Assembly (NCBI GenBank): GCA_021784675.1
Contig: JAJYHR010000148.1
Coordinates: 1 to 37,740, forward strand
DNA from: Actinomycetes bacterium
Lineage (GTDB): Bacteria > Actinomycetota > Acidimicrobiia > Acidimicrobiales > Acidimicrobiaceae
Length of the DNA stretch: 37,740 bases
Reading direction: 5' to 3'
Below the pieces are notes generated by a model. The model worked only from the letters and a program-made list of their open reading frames with translations, did no database searches and was not told the origin of the DNA. How positions within the stretch are numbered: the first letter of the stretch is position 1; each line of letters opens with the position of its first letter. The position numbers and the translations under genes were made by a program. This document shows, in pieces, positions 1 through 21,001 of the stretch.

Positions 1-254
1 TGCCAAACGCTGGTCAAAAGGCCAGAGGAAGGCACACCGCAAGGTGCAGTGCCGAAAGGCGAGAGCCCTGAGTAGCGCCAAGAACCGGGCCTCGTCGAGA
101 GAGATCTCGGCGTGCGAGCAAAGGCAAACCCAATCATCCGCCAGCCCCTCGGGGCCAGACCAGTTGGTCGCGGTGGCGTGAAGACGGTGGTGCCAAGCAA
201 CTCCAACCGCGCGGATGGGTCAGAAGCCCCGTCCGCATGGGCGGGGAGGTTCAC
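1..254 (+). ncRNA. Structured RNA, probably TnpB-type omega-RNA scaffold (5' end outside window)
   Basis: No credible reading frame covers this stretch, but it holds many short stems: CTGGTC/GGCCAG with an AAAA loop (10-25), CACC/GGTG with a GCAA tetraloop (35-46), GCC/GGC with a GAAA loop (51-60), GCCC/GGGC (144-155) and GACC/GGTC with an AGTT loop (158-169). It finishes in an 8-bp stem (227-234 with 239-246) preceded by GAAG and followed by AGGTTCAC, the layout usual at the right end of IS200/IS605-family elements, where the TnpB guide RNA scaffold ends. Omega-RNAs extend 3' of tnpB, so the nuclease gene, if present, would lie left of position 1. Inference from motif form only; another structured RNA is possible. 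Confidence 0.45.
220..254 (+). mobile_element. IS200/IS605-like right-end hairpin
   Basis: The strand reads CAGAAG, then CCCCGTCC, loop GCAT, GGGCGGGG, then AGGTTCAC. The stem is fully paired if one U-G wobble is allowed, and that wobble is allowed only when the plus strand is the RNA. The form matches the right ends of many actinobacterial tnpB-carrying IS200/IS605 elements as I remember them. If so, the transposon ends at about 254, and the bases from about 255 would be the flank that serves as guide sequence. No transposase or tnpB is visible in this window. Confidence 0.5.
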
Positions 255-456
255 CCTTGCCGAGCGGGCCGAGTCACAGGGACCAGCTCCCGCGACACGC
301 CTGCCCCTGGTTCCGTTGCCAAAGCGGCCGGTTCCCGCCCGCGGAAGAAGGCCCATCGCGGAGAGGCGAGAGCCGCTCCTGCGAACAGGGAAAGAGCTCC
401 CCGCAAGGGGCGGCAATCCAGATGATCGCTAGCGAACACTCACTGGGAACGGAATC
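255..456 (+). other. Gene-free stretch with GNRA-type hairpins upstream of cofD
   Basis: No supported gene. GNRA or similar tetraloop hairpins continue here: GGC/GCC with GAGA (365-374), CCTG/CAGG with CGAA (378-389) and CCCC/GGGG with GCAA (399-410). The decamer GGCGAGAGCC at 365-374 also occurs at 58-67, and TGCCAAA at 317-323 also occurs at 1-7, so this part may be a diverged partial copy of the first structured segment. A 10-bp palindrome TCGCTAGCGA lies at 424-433. No convincing promoter for cofD was found. Confidence 0.4.
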
Positions 457-20950: not shown

Positions 20951-21001
20951 CCGGTGGGCATCCTCCCCGCCCTTGCGGACGGGGCTTGCCCTCCCCACCG
21001 G
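20951..21001 (-). repeat. Two-tier hairpin resembling an IS200/IS605 right end
   Basis: An outer perfect 8-bp stem (20951-20958 with 20994-21001) encloses an inner stem (20965-20972 with 20977-20984). On the minus strand the inner part reads AAG, CCCCGTCC, GCAA, GGGCGGGG, AGG; over 26 bases it differs from the hairpin at 224-249 at one position, in the loop. A U-G pair makes the minus strand the better RNA. It begins 1 base after the adenosyltransferase stop and has no T-tract, so it may be a transposon relic, a terminator, or a relic reused as one. Confidence 0.5.

What the first reader, a model, noticed from the sequence alone, without database searches (positions are those of the whole stretch)
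1..254. Structured RNA ending in a TnpB-type right-end hairpin at the left edge
A gene-free stretch holds at least five small hairpins, two with GNRA loops, and ends in a fully paired CCCCGTCC/GGGCGGGG stem flanked by GAAG and AGGTTCAC. That end is the usual form of IS200/IS605 right ends, where omega-RNA scaffolds of TnpB nucleases stop. If right, bases from about 255 act as guide and a programmable nuclease or its relic lies just left of the window. A standalone RNA kept without the nuclease would be more unusual.
Basis: partly seen in the sequence, partly recalled or inferred. Interest (0 to 1): 0.7.

Follow-up and report, generated by a model that had tools for sequence, protein, structure and literature searches.

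The report
Right end of a TnpB transposon
The first 254 bases are the right-hand end of a small bacterial jumping gene (IS605 type), where the end of a TnpB RNA-guided nuclease gene overlaps the RNA that guides it; it is a new copy of a known kind of element, cut off by the edge of the assembled contig.

Summary
Window 1-254 is the right end (RE) of an IS200/IS605-family transposon. Its last base is 254; 72 distinct copies in this genome and relatives end with the same GGTTCAC-type terminus, followed by unrelated bases. The stretch is not gene-free: bases 2-181 are the in-frame 3' end of a tnpB gene, cut by the contig edge. A complete 2,009-bp homologue (L175) has a left end 90% identical to left-end contigs of this genome, an antisense Y1 transposase tnpA, tnpB, and a right end 95% identical to the window. 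Insertions follow a TTGAA-like target motif (the likely TnpB TAM; ISDra2 uses TTGAT). The RNA reading is supported by compensatory changes in one hairpin inside the coding tail (144-155) and by a conserved terminal hairpin and pseudoknot partners. TnpB carries the known 'alternative glutamate' active site, so a nuclease is expected, but no activity or RNA was measured. The guide would be the flank from 255, next to cofD. The body of this tnpB is not in the genome bin; the break at the same base in several copies is what a collapsed repeat would give. New member of a known kind, in acidophilic Acidimicrobiia.

The parts
1..254 (+). Right end of an IS200/IS605-family element (IS605 type, Y1 tnpA + tnpB); left part lost at the contig edge
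   Evidence: Multicopy, at contig ends in this genome; 72 distinct copies share the end; 95% identical to the RE of the complete element L175
2..181 (+). 3' end of tnpB: 59 codons + TGA, frame open to the contig edge (AKRWSKGQRKAHRK...DQLVAVA*)
   Evidence: 66% identity to residues 411-470 of a relative's full-length TnpB, no stop inside, E 2.4e-13; alignments A2/A3
142..254 (+). Probable core of the omega-RNA (reRNA) scaffold; its 5' end is not determined
   Evidence: Alignment A1 and pair counts
144..155 (+). Hairpin H1 GCCC-CUCG-GGGC inside the tnpB tail, kept by compensatory changes in relatives
   Evidence: 4 of 5 pairs (columns 2-6/11-15) changed on both sides; the structure exceeds all 500 shuffles on covariation score
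158..169 (+). Hairpin H2 GACC-AGUU-GGUC
   Evidence: 95.5% of cells paired, one-sided (wobble) changes only
174..195 (+). Stem-loop UGGC...GCCA with the GUGA motif (178-181, includes the tnpB stop codon) in its loop
   Evidence: 85.7% of cells paired, 2 of 4 pairs with a change on both sides
178..181 (+). GUGA, proposed pseudoknot partner of UCAC at 251-254
   Evidence: 94.6% of cells paired but nearly invariant, so weak evidence; analogous pseudoknot in ISDra2 (PMC10097598)
223..246 (+). GAAG plus terminal RE hairpin CCCCGTCC-GCAT-GGGCGGGG (expected TnpA recognition hairpin and part of the omega-RNA)
   Evidence: 92.9% of cells paired; present in 8 places of this genome
250..254 (+). TTCAC, right cleavage site and last bases of the element
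   Evidence: Shared end in the RE copies, random flank after it
255..270 (+). Flanking host DNA; would be the first ~16 nt of the guide
   Evidence: Boundary; 16-nt guide by analogy with ISDra2 (PMC8612924). No other match to TGAR + C + this sequence in the genome

Best explanation
Window 1-254 is the right end of a ~2.0-kb IS605-type transposon of acidophilic Acidimicrobiia. Shown: the tnpB reading frame enters from the left and stops at 181; the element ends at 254; complete homologues carry a Y1 (HUH) transposase antisense next to a left-end hairpin, then tnpB, then this right end; insertions lie 3' of a TTGAA-like motif. Inferred: TnpA excises and inserts the element as a single strand, recognising the two end hairpins; the 3' part of the tnpB transcript is the omega-RNA scaffold, and the ~16 nt after base 254 act as the guide, so that TnpB cuts the empty donor site TTGAA + flank and the element is copied back by repair.
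For: RE copies with one shared end and random flanks. TnpB tail in frame; family TnpB matches PF07282 and PF01385 over cut-off for both proteins tested, NF040570 guided_TnpB at 77-103 bits against a cut-off of 100, and a predicted fold like Cas12f/TnpB (ISFba1 TnpB 2.8e-13, ISDra2 TnpB 1.7e-11). RuvC-I D213, alternative E361 six residues before the first CxxC, and RuvC-III D396 are invariant in 13 proteins. Left ends in this genome with Y1 tnpA fragments and a TTGAA-like flank in nearly all copies. Complete element L175, 2,009 bp, ends 90%/95% identical to this genome's ends. Site without the element in related genomes. Covarying hairpin.
Against: The body of this tnpB is not in the bin, so intactness in this genome is unproven. 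TnpB models score near or below the curated NCBIfam cut-off. No Rfam match. Base-pair support rests mainly on one hairpin; the terminal hairpin and pseudoknot vary too little to test, and the single-strand fold of the window prefers a rival helix (210-218 with 228-236) that shows no covariation beyond chance. No transcript or cleavage data.
Confidence: 0.93

Rival explanations
1. It is the right end of an IS607-type element (serine recombinase tnpA) rather than IS200/IS605.
For: C22 of this genome joins an IS607-type tnpA N-terminus (MerR helix-turn-helix) to the same tnpB tail; the TnpB has the alternative-glutamate site that also occurs in IS607 TnpBs (PMC10711439).
Against: The base after the right end is random, whereas it is fixed in IS607 (PMC10711439). 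Y1 tnpA, not a serine recombinase, lies between matching ends in L175 and L086/L190. L084 shows a separate IS607 element inserted into this tnpB, which explains such junctions.
Confidence: 0.03
2. It is a decayed or nonautonomous copy: a tnpB tail plus right end whose RNA, if made, is used in trans by another copy's TnpB or not at all.
For: Some copies in this genome are clearly broken (C149 lost the terminal hairpin; C99 is an internal deletion), several relatives carry broken tnpB, and no tnpB body is in the bin.
Against: Contigs C37, C135, C35 and C149 all start at the same base with >=99% identity, the pattern expected from an assembly break in a collapsed repeat; the frame has no stop in any of the four copies.
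Confidence: 0.2
3. The hairpins are only a coding-sequence accident; the selected things are the protein tail and the DNA hairpin for TnpA, with no functional RNA.
For: The terminal hairpin is needed as DNA by the transposase in this family (established for IS608/ISDra2, own knowledge); the pseudoknot pairs overlap the stop codon.
Against: H1 keeps pairing through changes on both sides within codons. Differences do not concentrate at third codon positions (54:25:46 over five comparisons), so the nucleotides themselves seem constrained. The tail is predicted disordered (pLDDT <50 for residues 452-489).
Confidence: 0.06

Closest known systems
ISDra2 (IS200/IS605) of Deinococcus radiodurans, TnpB + reRNA/omega-RNA
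   Same: Y1 tnpA and tnpB between hairpin ends; omega-RNA overlaps the 3' end of tnpB and the RE; the last bases of the RE pair in a pseudoknot; target/TAM TTGAT beside the left end (PMC8612924, PMC10097598)
   Different: Here tnpA is antisense to tnpB, the target motif is mostly TTGAA (with variants, including TTGAT), TnpB has the alternative glutamate and a DEG RuvC-I motif, and a disordered C-terminal tail runs through the RNA region
Alternative-glutamate (Ealt) TnpBs and Fanzors
   Same: E six residues before the first CxxC of the zinc finger, canonical glutamate missing (PMC10711439)
   Different: RuvC-I motif is DEG, neither D-hydrophobic-G nor DPG; linked to a Y1 transposase; not the cyanobacterial IS607 pro-Fanzor clade
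IS607 TnpB / reRNA (for example ISXfa1)
   Same: TnpB-type nuclease with reRNA at the right end
   Different: Serine recombinase and a fixed right-flanking base in IS607; here Y1 transposase and a random right-flanking base

Membership tests
IS200/IS605 insertion sequences | Y1 (HUH) transposase tnpA within the element | tested here: met
   PF01797 3.9e-37 in L086 and 3.6e-15 for the fragment at own left end C29; antisense Y1-like ORF in L175. Not seen on the window contig itself, which starts inside tnpB
IS200/IS605 insertion sequences | Subterminal imperfect hairpins at both ends | tested here: met
   RE hairpin 227-246 and LE hairpin in C29/C180/C15/C55/C60/C140
IS200/IS605 insertion sequences | Insertion 3' of a short fixed motif, right-flanking base variable, no target duplication | tested here: met
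   TTGAA-like motif left of nearly all LEs; random right flank; element-free site in related genomes at the L169 position, one base from exact. The window's own left junction could not be seen
TnpB RNA-guided nucleases | RuvC domain with D-E-D residues and zinc finger | tested here: met
   PF07282 and PF01385 over cut-off; D213, E361 (alternative position) and D396 invariant; Cas12f/TnpB folds in PDB (model mean pLDDT 70.5). Tested on relatives, since the window holds only the tail
TnpB RNA-guided nucleases | Curated model NF040570 guided_TnpB | tested here: inconclusive
   103.2 bits for one member, 77-93 for four others; cut-off 100
omega-RNA / reRNA | Structured RNA ending at the RE, with conserved pairing | tested here: met
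   H1 covariation, whole structure 0/500 shuffles on score; boundary at 254. Only one hairpin gives strong covariation
omega-RNA / reRNA | Transcribed, bound by TnpB, directs cleavage through the flank-derived guide | not testable with these tools
   No RNA-seq or biochemistry available
IS607 | Serine recombinase tnpA and fixed right-flanking base | tested here: not met

The most novel reading that the evidence does not exclude
The many right ends in this genome, each with a different flank, form a set of guide RNAs that one or few intact TnpB copies use in trans, including right ends whose own tnpB is gone, so that standalone scaffolds persist as guides with a host-level or element-level role.
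Probability: 0.06. Interest if true: 0.6.

Novelty: new member of a known kind. Interest (0 to 1): 0.3.

Why it matters
It shows that a reader of raw sequence can spot a TnpB guide-RNA end from a hairpin and its flanks at a contig edge. The family itself is a well-sampled set of alternative-glutamate TnpBs carried by Y1 transposons in acidophilic actinobacteria, including a cultured species (Acidithrix ferrooxidans), with the target motif and RNA boundary read from sequence, so the nuclease, its TAM and its guide could be tested directly.

Tried and rejected
Rfam at gathering score and permissive thresholds: nothing relevant (a sub-threshold DUF3800-XI match of 14 bits over the terminal hairpin was dismissed). 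Plasmid records: no match. IS607 origin, suggested by C22, rejected (see rivals). Partner left-end contig of this particular insertion sought by synteny with the same-genus genome G001: cofD is there, but its upstream region matches none of the left-end contigs, so the window's own TAM could not be read. Empty copy of the window's target in the genome: none. A second, decayed tnpB tail at window 334-400 (SRPRKKAHRGEARAAPANRERA): weak (E 0.008 in a tiny database) and not found by a profile of the RE.

Full report
What the window is. The window is the whole of contig C37 of a 1.95-Mb, 195-contig, 86%-complete genome bin. Its left edge is therefore a contig end. Relatives that carry the same element are acidophilic Acidimicrobiia: Acidithrix ferrooxidans, Ferrimicrobium and Acidimicrobiaceae MAGs among others.

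The observation. The stretch 1-254 is repeated: 99-100% identical copies lie at the ends of contigs C135 and C35, a 1-206 copy in C149, and 87-98% copies of the last 105-126 bases in C83, C89, C56 and C79. Contigs C37, C135, C35 and C149 all break at the same base, as expected when an assembler collapses a multicopy element. In 72 distinct copies from this genome and relatives the sequence ends with the GGTTCAC-type terminus and the bases that follow are random. Base 254 is thus the end of a mobile element.

It is not gene-free. Bases 2-181 are an open frame ending in TGA whose 59 residues align to residues 411-470 of a relative's full-length TnpB (alignments). The ORF list missed it because the start lies off the contig. 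The matching tnpB body is not in the bin: a search with a family TnpB finds only the four tails and the C99 fragment, so the eight other PF07282 hits of this genome belong to other TnpBs.

The whole element. Left ends were found in six contigs of this genome (C29, C180, C15, C55, C60, C140) by the hairpin CAATCCCCGTCCGT(A/G)AGGGC; Y1 transposase C-termini lie next to them in C29, C180 and C15. One contig, L175 (JAJYVN010000100.1, a MAG labelled Bacillota, possibly a misbinned contig), holds a complete 2,009-bp element: left end 90% identical to C29/C180, antisense Y1-like TnpA of about 150 residues, TnpB, and a right end 95% identical to window 1-254. L086/L190 has the same layout; L079, L080 and L091 have tnpB alone between the ends. 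This makes it an IS605-type member of IS200/IS605.

Target motif. The bases left of the left end are TTGAA followed by C in most copies; variants are ATGAA, ATGAG, TTGAG, TTGAC, TTGAT and TTAAA. For the insertion in L169, which lies in the 3' end of a toxin-like reading frame resembling YoeB (my reading of the frame, not tested by profile), related genomes have the same site without the element: CTTGGA|GAATTAC and CCTGTA|GAATCAC (also G012). The comparison suggests that the C after TTGAA came with the element, but the relatives differ in the motif itself, so this single base is unsettled. By analogy with ISDra2, whose TTGAT target is also its TAM (PMC8612924), TTGAA is the likely TAM. The left junction of the window's own insertion could not be found.

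The RNA. In 28 copies with the short form of hairpin H1 (window 144-155), pairs change on both sides while pairing is kept: G-C to A-U, C-G to U-A, U-A to C-G. The five-helix structure tested beats all 500 shuffles on covariation score, on percentage paired and on cells with double changes, and beats every slid version. Copies with a longer hairpin fold likewise. The hairpin lies inside codons of the TnpB tail, most of which is predicted disordered, and differences between the window and five relatives do not concentrate at third codon positions (54:25:46). The terminal hairpin (227-246) and the pseudoknot candidate GUGA(178-181)/UCAC(251-254) are conserved but vary too little to test. The latter resembles the ISDra2 pseudoknot formed by the last bases of the right end (PMC10097598). 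RNA folding of the window alone prefers a helix 210-218 with 228-236 that has no covariation beyond shuffles. The 5' end of the RNA is unknown; the two GNRA-loop hairpins may lie upstream of it, and their loops vary in relatives.

The nuclease. Thirteen TnpBs of the family share D213 in RuvC-I (motif DEG), a glycine at 313 where the canonical RuvC-II glutamate is expected, E361 six residues before the first zinc-finger CxxC, and D396. This is the known alternative-glutamate arrangement (ExxxxxxCxxC; PMC10711439). The DEG motif fits neither the D-hydrophobic-G nor the DPG class of that paper. Pfam PF07282 and PF01385 are over cut-off; NF040570 scores fall on both sides of its cut-off. A model of moderate confidence (mean pLDDT 70.5) finds Cas12f and TnpB structures.

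Mechanism. Shown: element boundaries, gene order in homologues, insertion 3' of a TTGAA-like motif, TnpB family and intact catalytic residues in relatives, a covarying hairpin. Inferred: single-strand transposition by TnpA; production of an omega-RNA ending after ~16 nt of flank; cutting of the empty site by TnpB so that repair restores the element. Guide of this copy: CCTTGCCGAGCGGGCC (255-270), upstream of cofD (PF01933).

Verdict. The element is a new member of a known kind. What is mildly unusual is the combination of an alternative-glutamate, DEG-type TnpB with a Y1 transposase and a disordered coding tail that doubles as guide RNA.

Noticed in passing
C149:16386-16591 (L042): A right-end copy that has lost its terminal hairpin, apparently by deletion between two GGCGGGG repeats, while keeping GGGAGGTTCAC.
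   Followed up: partly
C22:1-457 (L028): The N-terminus of an IS607-type tnpA (MerR-like helix-turn-helix) is fused to the tail of this tnpB.
   Followed up: partly
L084 (G079:C16:50700-54800): This family's tnpB is interrupted at its zinc finger by an IS607 element with its own tnpA and tnpB.
   Followed up: partly
C99:1444-1770 (L049/L116): Internal-deletion derivative: tnpB N-terminus joined directly to the right-end hairpin.
   Followed up: no
window 20959-20988 (-): A lone hairpin CAAGCCCCGTCCGCAAGGGCGGGGAGGATG, nearly the same as at C6:3422-3451; looks like the end of another IS605-type element.
   Followed up: partly
window 334-420: Upstream of cofD, a stretch that weakly resembles a second decayed TnpB tail and matches C33:6620-6659 at 85%.
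   Followed up: partly
L169 (G015:C186), site around 458/2052: The element is inserted in the 3' end of a YoeB-like toxin reading frame that lacks the insertion in related genomes.
   Followed up: partly
L175 (JAJYVN010000100.1): The closest complete copy lies in a MAG labelled Bacillota, although nearly all other carriers are labelled actinobacteria: misbinning or transfer.
   Followed up: no
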